Of a stretch of 64,000 bases of DNA, positions 19,384 through 59,056 are shown piece after piece. The DNA comes from Paracyclopina nana (lineage: Eukaryota > Arthropoda > Copepoda > Cyclopoida > Cyclopettidae). A program made the translations under genes and the position numbers. Under the pieces are notes generated by a model. The model was not told where the DNA came from and made no database searches. It saw only the letters and a program-made list of their open reading frames with translations. Positions within the stretch are counted from its first letter, which is position 1; each line of letters starts with the position of its first letter. The stretch spans positions 16,752,501 to 16,816,500 of the forward strand of contig JAGUCH010000002.1 in assembly GCA_019096065.1 (NCBI GenBank). The letters are read 5' to 3'.

Positions 19384-22300
19384 ATGCTTAATGACCTTCG
19401 TGCTCTTTTGCAGTTCCTCCTCACCACGACTCTTCTCGTGGGGCTCGCGGCCGCCAAGCCCAGCCCACAGGACAGCTATGGGGCCCCCCAGGCCGACCCC
19501 GTCGTAGACGGCTACGGAGCCCCCAAGGCCCCGCCCTGCCGCACCCAAAAGTCCCCCAACCCCATCCCCGGAGCGGAGTGCTCCGCTGACGCTCCGGAAT
19601 GCCAGCAACAATGCCAAACCGTGTACGAGCCCAAGTGCGAGATCCAGTACGAGGCGGAGTGCAAGACGGTCCAGGACCAGAAGTGCGAGACCAAGTACGA
19701 GGACGAATGCTCGACCACGTACGAGCAGGTGTGTCGCACCGAGTACGATTCCCAGTGCGACACCGTCTATGACACCAAGTGCGAGACCACGTACGAAACC
19801 GTGTATGAGGACAAATGCGAAACGGTCTACGAGGACCAATGCCAGACGGTGTACGATCAAAAGTGCGAGACCCGTTACGAGGACAAGTGCGAGACCGTGT
19901 ACGAGACGAAATGCGAGCAGCAGTACGAGCAGCAGTGCCAGCAGGTCCAGGATCAGGAGTGCAGGTCGGAGAACGAGCGCAAGTGCGAGACCTCGTACGA
20001 GACCAAGTGCGAGACCACGTACGAGACCTCGTACGATCAGGTGTGCAACACCGTTGAGGAGCAAAAGTGCGAGACCGTCTATGACACCATCACGGACCAG
20101 AAGTGCGAGACCGTCTACGAGACCGTGTACGAGCAAAAGTGCTCCACCGCCTACGATACCGTGAACGAGGAGAAGTGCGAGACCAAGTACGACACCGTTC
20201 AGGAGCAGCAGTGCGCCACCGTCTACGATACGGTGAACGAGGAGAAATGCGAGACCAAGTATGACACGGTCAACGAGCAAAAGTGCGAGACCCAGTACAT
20301 CACGGAGTACGACCAAAAGTGCGAGACCAAGTACGATACCCAGTACGACACCCAATGCGATACGGTCTACGACACCGTCTATGAGGACAAGTGCGAGACC
20401 AAGTACGACACCAAGTGCGAGACTGTGTACGATACGGTCTACGATACGGAGTACGACACCAAGTGCGAGACCCAGTACGAGACCGAGTACACCACCGAGT
20501 ACAAGGAGGAGTGCAGCACTGCCTACGACACCAAATGCGAGACCGCCTATGACACCGTCTACGAGAACCAGTGTCAGACCACCTACGACACCAAGTGCGA
20601 AACCCAGTACGAGACGGTGTACGAGCAGAAGTGCGAGACCAAGTACGAGACCCAATGCCAGACCCAGTACGACACCATTCAGGAGCAAAAGTGCGAGACC
20701 CAGTACGAGAACGAGTGTAGCACCGTCTATGAGACGGAGTACGATACCCAGTGTCGCACCGAATACCGCACCGAGTACGAGACCCAGTACGAGACCAAAT
20801 GCGAGACGAGGTACGAGCAGAAATGCGAGACCAGGTACGAAACCGAGTACGAAACCCAGTACGAGCAAGAGTGCCGCCAAGTGCCCGAGCAGGAGTGCTC
20901 AACCACCTACGAGAGCGTCTGCGAGACCCAGTACGAAACCGAGTACGAGGAGGTGTGCGACCAGGCTGCTCCAGACGCATACGGCGCTCCCAAGGCTGCT
21001 CCAGTGTCCAACGCTTACGGCTCTCCCGCTGGCGACTCCTATGGATCCCCCCAGGCAGCCGCGGACTCCTATGGAGCTCCCCAAGCTGCGCCCTGCCGCC
21101 AAGTGCCCAAGCAGGTGGAGAAGCAAAGCTGCAGAGATGTCCCCAGGGAGCAATGCAAGCAGGTGTACCGCTCCGAATGCCAGAACGTTCCCAAGCAGGT
21201 GCCCAAGCAGATTGAGAAGGAAAGCTGCGTCGATGTGCCAAGGGAGGAATGCAACCAGGTGCCGAGGCAGGTGCCCAAGCAGGTGCCCGAGGAGAAATGC
21301 GAGCAGGTGCCGAGGCAGGTGCCCAAGCAAAACTGCCAGCAGGTGGAGCGGCAAAACTGCTTCAATGTCCCCAGGCAAGTACCGAGGGAGGAGTGCCAGC
21401 AGGTGCCCAGGGAGGAGTGCAAGGATGTGCCCAGGCAACAGGAGAAGCAAAACTGCCAGCAAGTCCCGAGGGAGGTGTGCAACCCTGTCCCCAGACAGGT
21501 GGCCAGGGAGGAATGCCAGCAGGTGCCGAGGCAGGAGTGCCGCAACGTGCCCGTCCAGGTTCCCCAGCAGGTGGAGAAGCAAAACTGCCAACAGATCCCC
21601 AGACAGGTGCCCCGGCAACAAGGTAGGGAGGCGTGCGAGCAGGTTCAGCGCCAGGAATGCAACCCTGTGCCCCGACAAGTTCCCAGGCAGCAGTGCCAGC
21701 AGGTGCCCAGGCAGGTGGCGAGAGAGGAGTGCAAAAATGTGCCCCGCCAAGAGTCCAAGGAGGTGTGCCAGTCCATTCCGAGGGAGGTGCAGCGGCAGGA
21801 ATGCTACAACGTGCCCAGGCAGGTGCCCAGGGAGGAATGCCAATACGTGCCCAGACAAGTTGAGCGGCAGGAATGCTACAACGTGCCCAGGCAGGTGGCT
21901 CGACAAGAGTGTCAACAGGTGCCCCGGCAGGTGGAGAAGCAGGAATGCAACCAGATTCCCAGGCAGGTGGCGCGCGAGGCCTGCAAATACGTGCCGAGGC
22001 AGGAGTGCACCAACGTTCCCCGCCAGAATGAGGTGCAGAACTGCAATCAGATCCCCAGGGAGAACTGCTACGACGTGCCCAGGCAGGTGTGCGACCCCGT
22101 CTACAGGCAGGAGTGCCAGCAGGTGCCGAGGGAGGTGTGCAACCAGGTCCCGCGTCAACAGTGCAACCAGGTGGAGCGGCAGGAGTGCCGCGACGTGCCC
22201 CGCGAGCAGTGCAGCCCCGTGCCGCGCGAGTCGTGCAGCAAGGTGCCGCGCCAGCAGGAGGCGCAGAAATGCGGGCAGGTGCCCCGGCAGGAGTGTAAGC

Positions 22301-22560
22301 AGGTGCCCAGGCAGGCCTGCGACCAGGTGCCCCGCGAGAGCTGCCAGCAGGTGGAGAGGCAGGCCTGCTACAACGTGCCGCGCCAACAATGTGACCAGGT
22401 GGAAAAGCAGGCGTGCCGCGACGTGCCCCGCCAACAATGCACTCAGCAATGTACCAACTCCTACACTTGTCAAATCTGCGAGGCTCAAGACTCCTACGGA
22501 GCTCCCGTTGCCAATCCTCTCTCCAACTACTCCGCCGCCGCTGGGAAGAGGAAGAAGTAA
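19384..22560 (+). CDS. Giant secreted cysteine-rich tetrad-repeat protein
   Basis: A 1058-codon open frame. The first ATG (19384) gives a plausible signal peptide (MLNDLRALLQFLLTTTLLVG, then cleavage near AAA-KPS). A good splice acceptor ends at 19413 in the same frame, so the real first codons could come from an upstream exon. After a YGAP-motif segment comes an acidic repeat half (residues about 70-525) built of four-residue units Y/C-D/E-T-x (for example CETK YDTQ YDTQ CDTV). A linker rich in YGAP/YGSP motifs follows (about 527-568). Then comes a basic repeat half (about 570-1030) of units such as CQQV PRQV PREE. The C-terminus repeats the YGAP motif and ends in GKRKK. Cysteines stay on the four-residue register almost throughout. 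It is likely an extracellular structural protein (cuticle, shell or adhesive) that could be cross-linked through disulfides and tyrosines; that role is inference. I recognise no named family. Confidence 0.85.
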   Translation: MLNDLRALLQFLLTTTLLVGLAAAKPSPQDSYGAPQADPVVDGYGAPKAPPCRTQKSPNPIPGAECSADAPECQQQCQTVYEPKCEIQYEAECKTVQDQKCETKYEDECSTTYEQVCRTEYDSQCDTVYDTKCETTYETVYEDKCETVYEDQCQTVYDQKCETRYEDKCETVYETKCEQQYEQQCQQVQDQECRSENERKCETSYETKCETTYETSYDQVCNTVEEQKCETVYDTITDQKCETVYETVYEQKCSTAYDTVNEEKCETKYDTVQEQQCATVYDTVNEEKCETKYDTVNEQKCETQYITEYDQKCETKYDTQYDTQCDTVYDTVYEDKCETKYDTKCETVYDTVYDTEYDTKCETQYETEYTTEYKEECSTAYDTKCETAYDTVYENQCQTTYDTKCETQYETVYEQKCETKYETQCQTQYDTIQEQKCETQYENECSTVYETEYDTQCRTEYRTEYETQYETKCETRYEQKCETRYETEYETQYEQECRQVPEQECSTTYESVCETQYETEYEEVCDQAAPDAYGAPKAAPVSNAYGSPAGDSYGSPQAAADSYGAPQAAPCRQVPKQVEKQSCRDVPREQCKQVYRSECQNVPKQVPKQIEKESCVDVPREECNQVPRQVPKQVPEEKCEQVPRQVPKQNCQQVERQNCFNVPRQVPREECQQVPREECKDVPRQQEKQNCQQVPREVCNPVPRQVAREECQQVPRQECRNVPVQVPQQVEKQNCQQIPRQVPRQQGREACEQVQRQECNPVPRQVPRQQCQQVPRQVAREECKNVPRQESKEVCQSIPREVQRQECYNVPRQVPREECQYVPRQVERQECYNVPRQVARQECQQVPRQVEKQECNQIPRQVAREACKYVPRQECTNVPRQNEVQNCNQIPRENCYDVPRQVCDPVYRQECQQVPREVCNQVPRQQCNQVERQECRDVPREQCSPVPRESCSKVPRQQEAQKCGQVPRQECKQVPRQACDQVPRESCQQVERQACYNVPRQQCDQVEKQACRDVPRQQCTQQCTNSYTCQICEAQDSYGAPVANPLSNYSAAAGKRKK

Positions 22561-55200: not shown

Positions 55201-58200
55201 ACGTGGCTGCGCTGCATAGACGGTCATAAATTGGCGATTGTTTTGCTTTTGGAGCACTTGTGCCGAAAACTTTATTCATTTAACATAATCTACGTACGAA
55301 ATGACACCCTTTCAAACTAAGTAACGATATGAAACTCACGCATATTTTCACCCATTTCATTGTTGAAACCAAATTTTTTGAGCCTGGCTCAGCTAATCTG
55401 GAGATCAAGTTGCCACTCCTAATCATGTGACAAGTTGCATGCTCCCCAGTTTTTCCAAAAATACTTGCTCAAATAGCGCCATCTAACCTTAAGTTGGCTA
55501 CGCGCATGTGTCCAGCTCCACGAAAAAGCCCAAAGTTTTGATCATTGCAGGTGCCTTAATTGTCACATATCAAAATGTCCCATTATAAGTAGCACTAAGC
55601 CCTATCAACTAACAATCTTTAAGGACCCAGTAATATACCCTTCTGGATTGGCCTATGCTCAATGTCACATGGCATAATGTCTCACGGCAAATTGTCACAT
55701 AGCATATTGTCCCATAGCAAATGGTCTCATAGCATTTTGTCCCATATCATTTGGTCTCATAGCAAATTGTCACATAGGTATTTGTCACATAGGCATCTGT
55801 CACATAGCATATTGTCACATAGCACAATGGCCCATACAAATTGTCTCATAGCACAATGGCCCATAGCATATTGTCACAAAGCATATTGTCACATAGCAAA
55901 TTGTCTCATAGCAAATTGTCTCATAGCACAATGGCCCATAGCATATTGTCACATAGCATATCATAGCATATTGTCACATAGCACAATGGCCCATGGCAAA
56001 TTGTCTCATAGCATATTGTCACATAGCAAATTGTCTCATAGCAAATTGTCTCATAGCACAATGGCCCATAGCATATTGTCACATAGCTTATTGTTACATA
56101 GCATTTTGTCTCATAGAATATTGTCTCATAGCATTAAGTCATCTAGCAGATTGTTCCATAGCGAATTGTCTCGTAACAAATTGTCACACTATGAGACAAA
56201 ATCCTATGAGACAATTTTTCATGTAACAGTATGCTATGTGACAAATTGCTATGAGACAAATTACTATGAGCCATTTTGCTATGGAACAATATGCTATGAG
56301 ACAAAATCCCATGTGACAATATGCTATGAGCCAATTTGCTATGGGACAATTTGCTATGAGACAATAGGGTACTGGAAATCGGCCCATATTTCGCCCAGCG
56401 GTCAGCGCGTAGATTCTCAGATGGCTGAAAGCTGCCTGCGTGTGCCATCTCAGATGGCAAAATGCATAGTTCTGCCTTAATTTATTTAGAAAAGGGGCAT
56501 TTTTTCAAGCCCAATTTACTTATGGCACTAAAAAAATACGATTTTGTTATAATCTTACCATTTTGCAAGGTCTTGTTTGCTAAATAATCAACTTTTTTGC
56601 CTACTTTAAGGCTGGCTTTTGGGCTGGCTTTTGGGCCTGCTTGTGCATCAATTAAAAGTGCCACTAGATCAGCCTACGCAATAAAAGTGGCTGCTTTAAT
56701 TTATTGAGCTAGCTCTTTATGGCTTTTATTGAGATCAAATTCTGGTAACGACTCCGATCCAAAATGGCCGATGGGTCATCTGCGATCACGCGAACATGAC
56801 GTCAAGCCATCTGAATTTAACGCCATCTAGTGCACAGTGCTTTGCTCCGAGTCCCTATATGCTATGTGACAATAAGCTATGTGACAATATGCTATGAGAC
56901 AATATGCTATGAGACAATTTGCTATGGGACAATTTGCTATGGGCCATTGTTCTATGTGACAATATGCTATGTGACAATTTGATTTCCTTAGTAAAAAACA
57001 ATATAGCCTTGTTACCTCATTGGCTATGGAACATTCTAATATGTTCCAAGAATATAAAATTAATAATTTTTTGTAAAACTGGACACATGCGCGTAGCCCA
57101 ACAAAAGTTTGTCCATCTAACTGCTTATGCGGATAAACTTATTTGACTTTGTCATAGGAACCCTCGTTTCAAGAAATCAGAAAGCTGGAGAGGTCATCCA
57201 GGTCTCCATTTTTCCCTGGCTACAAGGCTGCGCAAAAGCTGGGGATCGGCTCTCACCTGTTGTCAAGAATCACTGGCTCCCTGTTCATCCTGAAGGGGTC
57301 GAAGGGTGCTGAGCTTGAGCATGCTGGAAAGGTCAACATCGGCCTCAACTTGAAGAACAACAAGAAGAGTGAAGAGGTGTGCGGCTATACCAGCAAGAGT
57401 CACGACAATAACTGGCTGTACTCGTCCAAAGCGTTGGACATTCTCAGGTCGTACATGTCTGAGTGGCCGGAGATCTTTGACTACATGTCATCCAGTGACA
57501 AAGTGTCTGGTGACTTTTTCCACTACAGCGACATCTTCCCCGTGGACGAGGGAGAAGACAAGCTCAAAGAGCTGACTGACTGGATCAGGGACCTGCCCTG
57601 TTCCAGTGCTGCCCGCCAGCCATGTGGCACCCTGACAGTAGAAGATGACATCATCAAAGCCATTGAGGAGACTGTCAACGCATCCGTCGCAAGTGACGAC
57701 GTGAGGAAGAAGAAGATTGTGATGCAGCTCAAGCCTCATCTGATCTTCAAGCCCAACTTGTACAAGGGCGGAAGCTTGCCTGACCCCGAGGCCGATTTCT
57801 ACCTCTTTGACCGGGTGGTCAACGTGAGGGAGGGATTCAGTGTTCCCCTCGGCCTTCGTGGCACGATCATTGGCCTGACGAAATCCAGCACCCTGGAAAA
57901 CCTGAGCGTCGAAGTCTTGTTCGACAAGGACTTCCATGGGGGTCTCAACATTAGGACTTCTTCTGCGAGAGCCTACAAAGTCCCGGTCACCGCTCTCATC
58001 AACATTTCTCACGGAGAAAGGAAAGCCAAGCGATCGAGCCAAGCTGTTGAGGAGGAAGCCAAAGCAGCACCGACGTTTGCAGCCAAGCCGAGGGCGTATG
58101 ATTCACGCAAGGCTCAGCCTCAATTGAGCTACTCGAATGTGGCACGGCATCAAGCTGCGGAGACCAGTTCTGCCAAAATCGTCTCTCCTCCTGATCCAAA

Positions 58201-59056
58201 ATCGTTGCCTCCTCCCTTTGAGTTGCTCAACTCGGCTAAAAACGAGCAAAATCACCATAAGGGCAACAATGCTGGAAATGGCTCTGAAGCCCAGCAGCCA
58301 TCATTGAGCATGCAGCAACTATGGGATGCTCTCCAAGGCACTCCTCAAATTATGCCTCAAATTATGCCTCAAATTATGCCTCAAATTATGCCTCAGGTCA
58401 TGCCTCAGGTTATGCCTCAGGTAATGCCTCAGGTTATGCCTCAGGTTATGCCTCAGGTTATGCCTCAGGTTATGCCTCAGGTTATGCCTCAGGTAATGCC
58501 TCAGGTAATGCCTCAGGTTATGCCTCAGGTCATGCCTCAGGTTATGCCTCAGGTCATGTCTCAGGTCATGTCTCAGGTTATGCCTCAGGTCATGCCTCAA
58601 GTTATGCCTCAGGTTATGCCTCAGGATAATGTCCGGGCCTTGAATCCCAATGTGGAGCAATTCTTTGCGCTTTCCCAGCAAGCTCAACACCCCATCAGAC
58701 CTCAGCCTCTTATGACGATGAATGTTCCTCCACCAATGATGCCGCATACCTTGGAGATGGCTCAAGGGTTTCCTCCAAGGCCAGGATTTGGAGCTTCGAA
58801 TGCCTACAATGGGGCGGCTTTGACGAGCTTTGTGCCTTTGCAGGTGGCAATCAAGGGCTCTGGTCGGGGTGCAGGCCGGGGAGGACCAGCTCCAAATCCT
58901 CAGCCTGTGGTACCTGCTCAAGCTCCCAGGGAGACCAGGCAAGTGAAGCCTCAGCCAGCAAAGCCGAAATCGCAGCCTAAAGAAAGCAAACGCAGTAGCC
59001 CGAAGGTGCAGAAAAGCTCTTCTAAAACGAGGCTAGCAGCCAATTTCCAATCTTAG
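52202..59056 (+). CDS. XRN1: XRN1/Pacman 5'-3' exoribonuclease
   Basis: Five exons: 52202-52614, 52670-52907, 52969-54795, 54849-55109 and 57158-59056; phases match, giving 1545 residues. The start [15 protein letters not shown] is invariant in XRN proteins. Metal-binding acidic residues are in place: D35 (LYLDMNG), D86 ([20 protein letters not shown]), E176 and E178 (TPGEGEH), D206 and D208 ([11 protein letters not shown]), and the aspartate in GNDFLPHLP. Conserved PAZ/Tudor, KOW, winged-helix and SH3-like regions should occupy the middle ([40 protein letters not shown]). The C-terminal tail is low complexity, with a PQVM minisatellite near residue 1310. XRN1 degrades decapped mRNA in the cytoplasm (P-bodies). 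Intron 4 (2 kb) holds nested transposons. The 3' end is convergent with Nup37, with only 55 bp between the stop codons. Confidence 0.97.
55493..57102 (+). mobile_element. 1.6-kb inverted-repeat element nested in MITE copy 7
   Basis: The ends GGCTACGCGCATGTGTCCAG and CTGGACACATGCGCGTAGCC are perfect complements over 20 bp and extend slightly further with one extra base. Inside are long arrays of a 15-bp unit. No transposase-like frame. Target duplication not clear. Confidence 0.75.
55662..56985. repeat. Inverted arrays of a 15-bp unit (CATAGCAAATTGTCA-type)
   Basis: From about 55662 to 56185 some 35 units of the form CATAGCAnnTTGTCn run in one direction, with slow base changes (TTGTC/TGGCC, AAA/TAT/CAA). 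From about 56190 to 56365 the same unit runs in complement (CTATGAGACAATATG). A further complementary block lies at 56863-56985. The arms can fold into long imperfect hairpins. Open frames across this region are artefacts of the repeat. Confidence 0.85.
58345..58625 (+). repeat. In-frame 12-bp minisatellite in XRN1 (PQVM repeat)
   Basis: About 23 tandem copies of a 12-bp unit (CCTCAGGTTATG and variants) encode PQIM four times and then PQVM, with two SQVM variants. All units stay in frame, adding about 92 residues to the low-complexity tail. Confidence 0.93.

What the first reader, a model, noticed from the sequence alone, without database searches (positions are those of the whole stretch)
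19384..22560. A roughly 1000-residue protein locked to a four-residue register, acidic in one half and basic in the other
Seen directly: from about residue 70 to 1030 the protein divides without slips into tetrads whose first position is Cys, Tyr, Pro, Glu or Ala. In the first half the tetrads are (Y/C)(D/E)T(x), rich in acid and tyrosine. In the second half they are (C)(x)(x)V alternating with PRQV or PREE, rich in Arg/Gln/Pro. Cysteines occur only in the first tetrad position in both halves. Matching cysteine spacing with opposite charge suggests the halves could pair with each other, or between molecules, as a self-complementary fibre fixed by disulfides and perhaps dityrosine. I know of no described family with this layout.
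Basis: partly seen in the sequence, partly recalled or inferred. Interest (0 to 1): 0.82.

Follow-up and report, generated by a model that had tools for sequence, protein, structure and literature searches.

The report
Giant protein zipped by mirrored cysteines
An arthropod gene encodes a long protein whose two halves carry their cysteines in exact mirror image, so the chain can probably fold back on itself and zip shut with up to 46 disulfide bonds; shorter versions of the same pattern occur in bacteria related to Bdellovibrio.

Summary
The register is real: 46 of 46 Cys in residues 73-525 share one class mod 4, and 46 of 46 in 571-1023 share another. In the same genome 14 of 26 fetched loci encode relatives with a mirror axis; with the window gene, 648 of 672 Cys are mirrored, though 8 of the 15 lists are too short or uniform to exclude chance by shuffling. 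Charges covary between arms at i+j = S+2 (367 opposite, 19 like; stratified z -11.3), and 367 of 367 arm prolines lie on the Cys face. I infer a secreted antiparallel two-stranded ribbon, about 150 nm long, closed by 46 disulfides, probably cuticular. Nineteen proteins from the class of a Bdellovibrionales genome show the mirror, 16 with a four-residue turn. No Pfam, NCBIfam or PDB match above cut-off, and no paper, was found. Disulfides, fold and tissue are untested; AlphaFold support is weak.

The parts
19384..22560 (+). Open reading frame, 1058 aa (the real coding exon may begin at 19414)
19396..19413 (+). Probable splice acceptor (pyrimidine-rich tract ending CAG) before the hydrophobic signal stretch
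   Evidence: sequence; in models of relatives L021, L024 the hydrophobic exon also starts without ATG; first exon not found; inference
19414..19455 (+). Hydrophobic core of a signal peptide, FLLTTTLLVGLAAA
   Evidence: sequence; inference, no signal-peptide predictor run
19456..19536 (+). Short YGAP (resilin-like) N-terminal segment
   Evidence: sequence
19537..19599 (+). N-terminal cap with Cys 52 and 66; caps that look similar by eye in L021, L022, L026, L027
19600..20967 (+). Arm A (residues 73-528): tetrads (C/Y)(E/D)(T/Q)x, 46 Cys, 57 Tyr, net -78
20968..21093 (+). Linker (residues 529-570), YGAP/YGSP-rich, around the mirror axis (residue sum 1096)
21094..22452 (+). Arm B (residues 571-1023): C-x-x-V-P-R-Q-x type tetrads, 46 Cys, 50 Pro; Cys spacing is the exact reverse of arm A
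20920..20958 (+). Residues 513-525, predicted strand; mirror positions of 571-583
   Evidence: AlphaFold2 job, (block-mean pLDDT 55-84; whole model 54.9)
21094..21132 (+). Residues 571-583, predicted strand; mirror positions of 513-525 (513+583 = 525+571 = 1096)
   Evidence: block-mean pLDDT 70-76; the output does not show which strand pairs with which
22453..22485 (+). C-terminal cap with Cys 1029 and 1032; [YFW]-x-C-x-x-C also ends L021, L022, L026, L027, L030
22486..22557 (+). YGAP tail ending GKRKK

Best explanation
The gene encodes a secreted structural protein that folds back once, at the YGxP linker, into a very long antiparallel two-stranded beta ribbon. Arm A (residues 73-528) runs up and arm B (571-1023) runs down, with residue i opposite residue 1096-i. 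Each of 46 Cys in arm A faces a Cys in arm B, and I infer that each pair forms a disulfide, giving a 46-rung cystine ladder about 150 nm long (at 0.33 nm per residue) within one chain. Between the rungs Tyr of arm A usually faces Pro of arm B on the Cys side (in some relatives Asn takes the place of Tyr), and diagonal acid-base pairs bind the other side. Pro on Cys-side positions would leave the cross-strand hydrogen bonds intact and keep the outer edge of arm B from adding strands. The YGxP ends could tie the rod into a tyrosine-cross-linked (resilin-like) matrix, most likely the cuticle. Shown by sequence: the mirror, the covariation, the proline parity, the family. Inferred: secretion, beta structure, disulfides, intramolecular pairing, cuticle location, mechanical role.
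For: Mirror: 45 of 45 intervals identical when reversed, 46 pairs; 0 of 2000 shuffles reached it. The window gene, L022 and the shorter L035 have no intron in the arms, so no splicing model is involved. Family: 15 proteins, 648 of 672 Cys mirrored; seven (W, L021, L022, L024, L025, L026, L027) were never matched in 5000 shuffles each. Spacing orders differ between most relatives, so changes in one arm seem to have been matched in the other. Charge covariation at i+j = S+2 over 13 proteins: 367 opposite, 19 like, z -11.3 after stratifying by protein, gap length and position, 0 of 1000 permutations; z -10.4 without the window protein. Bacterial set: 65 opposite, 7 like, not permuted. Pro at even distance from Cys: 367 of 367 in 15 arthropod proteins, 108 of 110 in 19 bacterial ones. 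AlphaFold2 on residues 497-599: in the best model two strands at mirror positions about 1096. Cys spacing of 5 at the axis in 16 of 19 bacterial proteins favours a hairpin within one chain. Near-identical copies L024/L025 differ by 52 synonymous and 8 nonsynonymous changes and keep 70 of 70 Cys. 80 matches to cuticle domain PF00379 in this genome mark it as an arthropod's (inference).
Against: The longer AlphaFold2 job (residues 440-656) made arm A mostly helix at mean pLDDT 51.5; in the shorter one only the best of five models reached 54.9, the others 44.3 or less. Foldseek found no useful PDB match. For 8 of the 15 proteins (L028, L029, L032, L033, L035, L036, L037, L044) at least one of 5000 shuffles equalled the observed pairing. 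Of 26 fetched loci, five gave a partial mirror or none with the models I could make: L023 (23 pairs among 106 Cys), L030 (25 or 18 of 64 Cys, by model), L031 (11, 29 Cys), L034 (5, 18 Cys), L046 (6, 21 Cys); seven gave no usable model. For L027, L029, L032 and L036 the first, stricter models gave fewer pairs (24; 5 and 5 as two pieces; 7; 5); the relaxed splice scoring does not use the mirror but was adopted after I had seen it. Proline parity is partly a consequence of the tetrad register. Charge pairs at i+j = S-2 around Cys show no preference (31 opposite, 24 like), and S-4 has a smaller unexplained signal (z -4.3). Tissue, expression and disulfides are untested; the species is not identified.
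Confidence: 0.82

Rival explanations
1. Intermolecular zipper: arm A of one molecule pairs antiparallel with arm B of another (domain-swapped dimer or chain), giving a fibre.
For: The mirror and the covariation constrain A-B pairing but not whether both arms are in one molecule. Linkers range from 9 to 49 residues Cys to Cys; the window's 46 allows either.
Against: Short linkers of 9, 13, 13, 17, 19 and 19 in six of the 15 proteins and of 5 in 16 of 19 bacterial proteins favour a hairpin within one chain.
Confidence: 0.1
2. The regular register is only the relic of 12-base unit duplication; the halves do not pair.
For: Tandem Repeats Finder sees periods of 12, 24, 36, 48, 60, 72 and 108 bases, so the arrays did grow by unit duplication.
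Against: Duplication gives same-order, not reversed, spacing; no inverted DNA repeat of 40 bases or more is in the ORF. Exact reversal in paralogues with different spacing orders, plus stratified charge covariation, has no explanation that I can see without pairing.
Confidence: 0.02
3. The arms pair as proposed, but the protein works elsewhere than in cuticle: egg shell, silk, glue or a gland secretion.
For: No expression data. A signal peptide and YGxP ends fit any extracellular matrix. L027 carries long SYGSP arms, of a kind seen in elastic and silk-like proteins (recalled).
Against: No tissue-marking domain was found either way. Resilin-like motifs are typical of cuticle (recalled).
Confidence: 0.35
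4. The Cys pairs bind metal rather than form disulfides.
For: Cys is strictly kept in pairs.
Against: No His in either half; most Cys are 8 or more residues apart along each arm (two intervals of 4), so four ligands do not easily come together; the protein appears secreted. Inference only.
Confidence: 0.04

Closest known systems
Cystine ladder of theta-defensins, and beta-hairpin antimicrobial peptides (protegrin, gomesin and others)
   Same: A single antiparallel beta-hairpin closed by parallel disulfides; theta-defensins have three in 18 residues, protegrins two, hepcidins four (PMC6327110 and PMC13001179, passages only).
   Different: 46 rungs; arms of 453 residues; not cyclic; acidic arm; tetrad repeats; resilin-like surroundings.
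Cystine-ladder-like motif of green-alga HAP2
   Same: Three parallel disulfides in an extracellular loop (PMC6327110, passages).
   Different: [quoted passage not shown] no mirrored repeat arms mentioned in the passages seen.
Pro-resilin and RR cuticular proteins
   Same: YGAP/YGSP segments at the ends and in the linker (resemblance recalled).
   Different: PF00379 is not among the Pfam matches of this protein; resilin is Cys-poor (recalled).
Bdellovibrionales proteins L048-L050 and relatives (found here)
   Same: Mirrored Cys, many steps of 8, VPRQ-type right arm, diagonal charge pairs, Pro on the Cys face.
   Different: 4-14 mirrored pairs; turn of Cys spacing 5 (16 of 19) or 9 (3 of 19); a further C-terminal region; steps of 6, 7 and 4; outermost steps unequal (usually 12 and 13).

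Membership tests
Cystine-ladder beta-hairpins (theta-defensin type) | Nested Cys pairs with constant i+j | tested here: met
   46 of 46 register Cys of each arm pair at i+j = 1096
Cystine-ladder beta-hairpins (theta-defensin type) | Antiparallel beta-hairpin fold | tested here: inconclusive
   Strands at mirror positions in the best of five low-confidence models; helix in a longer job; sequence tests agree
Cystine-ladder beta-hairpins (theta-defensin type) | Experimentally shown disulfides | not testable with these tools
   Needs non-reducing peptide mapping
Cystine-ladder beta-hairpins (theta-defensin type) | Short, cationic peptide | tested here: not met
   1058 aa; arms net -78 and +15; antimicrobial activity not tested
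Pro-resilin / RR cuticular proteins | Chitin_bind_4 domain PF00379 | tested here: not met
   Not among the three Pfam matches at E up to 10
Pro-resilin / RR cuticular proteins | YGAP-type elastic repeats | tested here: inconclusive
   A few YGAP/YGSP units at ends and linker; long SYGSP tails in relative L027
Mirrored-Cys proteins of this genome | Left and right Cys spacings exact mirror images | tested here: met
   Window protein 45 of 45 intervals; identical reversed lists in 12 of 15 proteins, the other 3 (L029, L033, L044) have 1 or 2 extra Cys on one side
Any Pfam or NCBIfam family | Match over curated cut-off | tested here: not met
   Weak matches below cut-off only (Mucin-like E 0.012; Gp5_trimer_C E 0.0013 and DUF3432 E 0.0049 for the halves); none in NCBIfam up to E 1

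The most novel reading that the evidence does not exclude
This is a protein counterpart of a nucleic-acid hairpin: two arms that carry a mirrored, mutually checked code (Cys facing Cys, diagonal acid-base pairs), evolving by compensated insertions, and giving a single-chain covalent ribbon up to about 150 nm long whose length is set by its gene. The same device is used by an arthropod and by bacteria of the Bdellovibrionota, through gene transfer or convergence.
Probability: 0.6. Interest if true: 0.95.

Novelty: categorically new. Interest (0 to 1): 0.9.

Why it matters
The disulfide-closed hairpins described in the passages I read have one to four disulfides. A 46-rung ladder written as an exact mirror in one chain would be a new way to build a long stiff filament from a single molecule, with the pairing readable from sequence alone. 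It makes a sharp prediction (Cys i to Cys 1096-i) testable in one mass-spectrometry experiment, offers a self-checking evolutionary record (each insertion needs its mirror), raises the question of how such a chain folds without mispairing dozens of Cys, and is a template for designed materials. Its presence in Bdellovibrionales adds an evolutionary puzzle.

Tried and rejected
Known families: Pfam, NCBIfam and PDB sequence searches gave only weak matches below cut-off or none; the best PDB match of bacterial L049 was E 0.087. Viral contigs: nothing. Papers: ten searches, two of them with six sequence motifs each; I saw listings only, plus passages of three papers, and none described such a protein. 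Supplements, most subscription papers and preprints are not covered, so absence in print is weakly supported. Arthropod proteomes could not be searched.

Simple repeat relic: rejected because tandem duplication cannot reverse order. Parallel pairing: same-order match only 27 of 45 in the window protein, though it is 25 of 33 in L027, whose steps are mostly 8. Alpha-helical pairing: arm B holds 50 Pro, although AlphaFold2 made arm A helical in one low-confidence job. Foldseek of the short model: no useful match. First exon of the window gene: two weak candidates, undecided. L047 (planctomycete) I judged by eye to be a chance short repeat. L033 may be two tandem hairpins; its mirror was equalled by shuffles. 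L023, L030, L031, L034, L046 were left unresolved. L039 and L040 showed no stretch; L038 showed low-grade stretches on both strands and was not modelled; L041, L042, L043, L045 scored low. Hits at C9:184243 and C2:732140 were not fetched. A codon comparison of L024/L025 with an off-by-one exon end is replaced; an unstratified charge test; a one-strand reading. My notebook says that the residue before a Cys pairs with the residue before its partner; that is wrong (such pairs sum to S-2 and show 31 opposite, 24 like) and is corrected here. Facing of Tyr and Pro was counted but not tested against chance.
Full report
WHAT WAS CHECKED. The ORF at 19384-22560 is present and encodes 1058 residues. 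All 46 Cys between residues 73 and 525 are 1 mod 4, and all 46 between 571 and 1023 are 3 mod 4. The register is perfect inside each half and shifts by two at the YGAP/YGSP linker. Four more Cys (52, 66, 1029, 1032) form end caps. A pyrimidine-rich tract with AG at 19413 before the hydrophobic stretch looks like the end of an intron; models of some relatives also enter at a hydrophobic exon without an ATG. I could not fix the first exon.

THE MIRROR. The spacing list of the Cys in half 1, and that of half 2 read backwards, are the same in 45 of 45 intervals. Thus Cys i has a partner at 1096-i for all 46. The list has 10^17.6 distinct orders. With the right-hand spacings shuffled, the best axis gave at most 28 pairs in 2000 trials and at most 33 in 5000 trials restricted to the mirrored span. 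Same-order matching is 27 of 45. Tandem duplication makes same-order copies, and there are no inverted DNA repeats of 40 bases or more in the ORF, so the reversal needs a reason at the protein level. Antiparallel pairing is that reason.

THE FAMILY. The window lies in a 92-Mb genome of ten contigs with 80 matches to the cuticle domain PF00379, which I take to mark an arthropod. Searches with each half led me to fetch 26 further regions. I built splice models with a script that scores tetrad composition and splice sites, not the mirror. Fourteen of the 26 regions gave a protein with a clear mirror axis. Five gave a partial mirror or none: L023, L030, L031, L034, L046. Seven gave no usable model: L038-L040 were not modelled, and L041, L042, L043, L045 scored low. 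With the window gene there are 15 proteins, with 9 to 46 rungs, and 648 of 672 Cys are mirrored. Reversed lists are identical in 12 of 15. Seven of the 15 were never matched by 5000 shuffles; for the other eight at least one shuffle equalled the observed number. Orders differ between most relatives, while L024/L025, L032/L037 and L035/L036 share theirs. So I infer that changes in one arm were matched in the other. For L027, L029, L032 and L036 the relaxed splice scoring was needed; the stricter models gave 24 pairs, 5 and 5 (as two pieces), 7 and 5. The window gene, L022 and L035 have no intron within the arms, so their mirrors depend on no model.

TWO FURTHER TESTS. First, if residues face each other, charges should covary. 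Thirteen proteins were used (the near copy L025 and the ambiguous L033 were left out) and thirteen shifts were tried. Permuting inside the same protein, the same Cys gap and the same position, the pairs with i+j = S+2 give 367 opposite-charge and 19 like-charge pairs (z -11.3, 0 of 1000 permutations); without the window protein z is -10.4. The next values are z -4.3 at S-4, +2.8 at S+4 and -2.6 at S. Most of the signal is at offset 1, with 318 opposite and 8 like; offset 3 gives 43 and 3. Offset 1 means the residue after Cys or Tyr in arm A with the residue after the facing Cys or Pro in arm B. For Cys alone the count is 58 opposite and 7 like, whereas residues before the Cys (sum S-2) give 31 and 24. 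Passages of PMC9268152 state that diagonal cross-strand contacts follow from the right-handed twist of beta sheets; that the S+2 direction fits hydrogen-bonded sites is recalled. Second, Pro cannot donate a hydrogen bond, so in a two-stranded ribbon it should avoid the positions bonded across. All 367 Pro within the arms of the 15 proteins lie at even distance from the preceding Cys. Most of these follow from the tetrad register, but Pro at the other even position of the tetrad also occurs (22 in arm B of 13 proteins) and none at odd positions. This fits Cys at non-hydrogen-bonded sites, where cross-strand disulfides are expected (recalled).

STRUCTURE PREDICTION. Single-sequence AlphaFold2 was poor. 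For residues 440-656 it gave mostly helix in arm A at mean pLDDT 51.5. For residues 497-599 the best model gave two strands, 513-525 and 571-583, which are mirror positions about 1096, with block-mean pLDDT 55-84 and 70-76 in a model of mean 54.9. The other four models were at 44.3 or below, and the output does not state that the two strands pair. This is weak support. Foldseek found nothing useful.

BACTERIAL COUNTERPARTS. A DNA pattern for C-x-x-V/I-P-type repeats hit four contigs in the prokaryote collection. One (L047) looks like chance. Three (L048, L049, L050) encode proteins with signal-like N-termini and the same mirror. Searching 58 genomes of the class of G002 (the L050 genome) gave matches in 14. 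Searching 368 genomes of its phylum with another query gave matches in 19; those loci were not examined. Of the 31 loci L048-L078, 11 repeated a protein already seen, one (L066) gave no qualifying ORF, and the 19 distinct proteins left all have 4 to 14 mirrored pairs and no unpaired Cys inside the mirrored span. Candidate ORFs were chosen by their number of 8-residue steps, not by the mirror, and several are close orthologues. Over their whole length 256 of 322 Cys are mirrored; the rest, among them an outermost pair with unequal steps (usually 12 and 13), lie outside the span. Sixteen of 19 turn at Cys spacing 5 and three at 9. Charge pairs at S+2 are 65 opposite and 7 like; 108 of 110 Pro are on the Cys face. 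The three scanned have no Pfam match over cut-off and none in NCBIfam; neither L049 nor a profile of seven of the 19 has a convincing PDB relative. Whether they share ancestry with the arthropod family or arrived at the same code is open.

HOW IT MOST LIKELY WORKS. The chain is secreted, folds back at the linker, and zips into a two-stranded ribbon of about 150 nm whose 46 rungs are disulfides. Tyr of arm A stands opposite Pro in 36 of the 56 Tyr positions listed for the window protein, otherwise mostly opposite Glu (12); in L022 and L024 Asn takes the place of Tyr. Pro on the Cys face keeps the ribbon two-stranded, and the YGxP ends connect to a resilin-like matrix. L027 has long SYGSP segments on both sides, as if the rod were set in an elastic network. 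Purifying selection is strong between the near-identical copies L024 and L025 (52 synonymous, 8 nonsynonymous changes, 70 of 70 Cys kept). Secretion, the disulfides, the beta fold and the cuticle site are inference.

COMPARISON. The nearest described motif is the cystine ladder of theta-defensins (three parallel disulfides) and the beta-hairpin antimicrobial peptides (passages read). The pairing principle is the same; size, composition, context and evolutionary behaviour are not. It fails the PF00379 test for RR cuticular proteins. I rate it categorically new as an architecture, with the caveat that arthropod proteomes and most subscription papers could not be searched.

Noticed in passing
L024 (C1:8.33 Mb) and L025 (C3:3.47 Mb): Near-identical copies of one mirrored gene on two contigs; 52 synonymous against 8 nonsynonymous differences.
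   Followed up: partly
L027 (C9:4.197 Mb): Mirrored-Cys gene flanked on both sides by long SYGSP / NSAPDSYGSP resilin-like arrays.
   Followed up: partly
L048: Contig labelled Nitrosovibrio carries much the same gene neighbourhood as Bdellovibrionales contig L049; the label or the bin is probably wrong.
   Followed up: no
L050:4844-5878: The bacterial protein has a lipobox-like LAAC after its hydrophobic start, so it may be a lipoprotein with the hairpin as a stalk (motif recalled).
   Followed up: no
window 57260-59056: ORF with a long MPQV/MPQI tetrapeptide run.
   Followed up: no
window 55662-56480: ORF made of [12 protein letters not shown] repeats, perhaps a minisatellite read as protein.
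   Followed up: no
L033 (C5:0.77 Mb): Possibly two mirrored hairpins in tandem with Cys-to-Cys turns of 10; the single-axis mirror was equalled by shuffles.
   Followed up: partly
L029 and bacterial L067, L069, L070, L078: Steps that break the 4-residue rule (6 in L029; 7 and 4 in the bacterial ones) are also mirrored on the other arm.
   Followed up: partly
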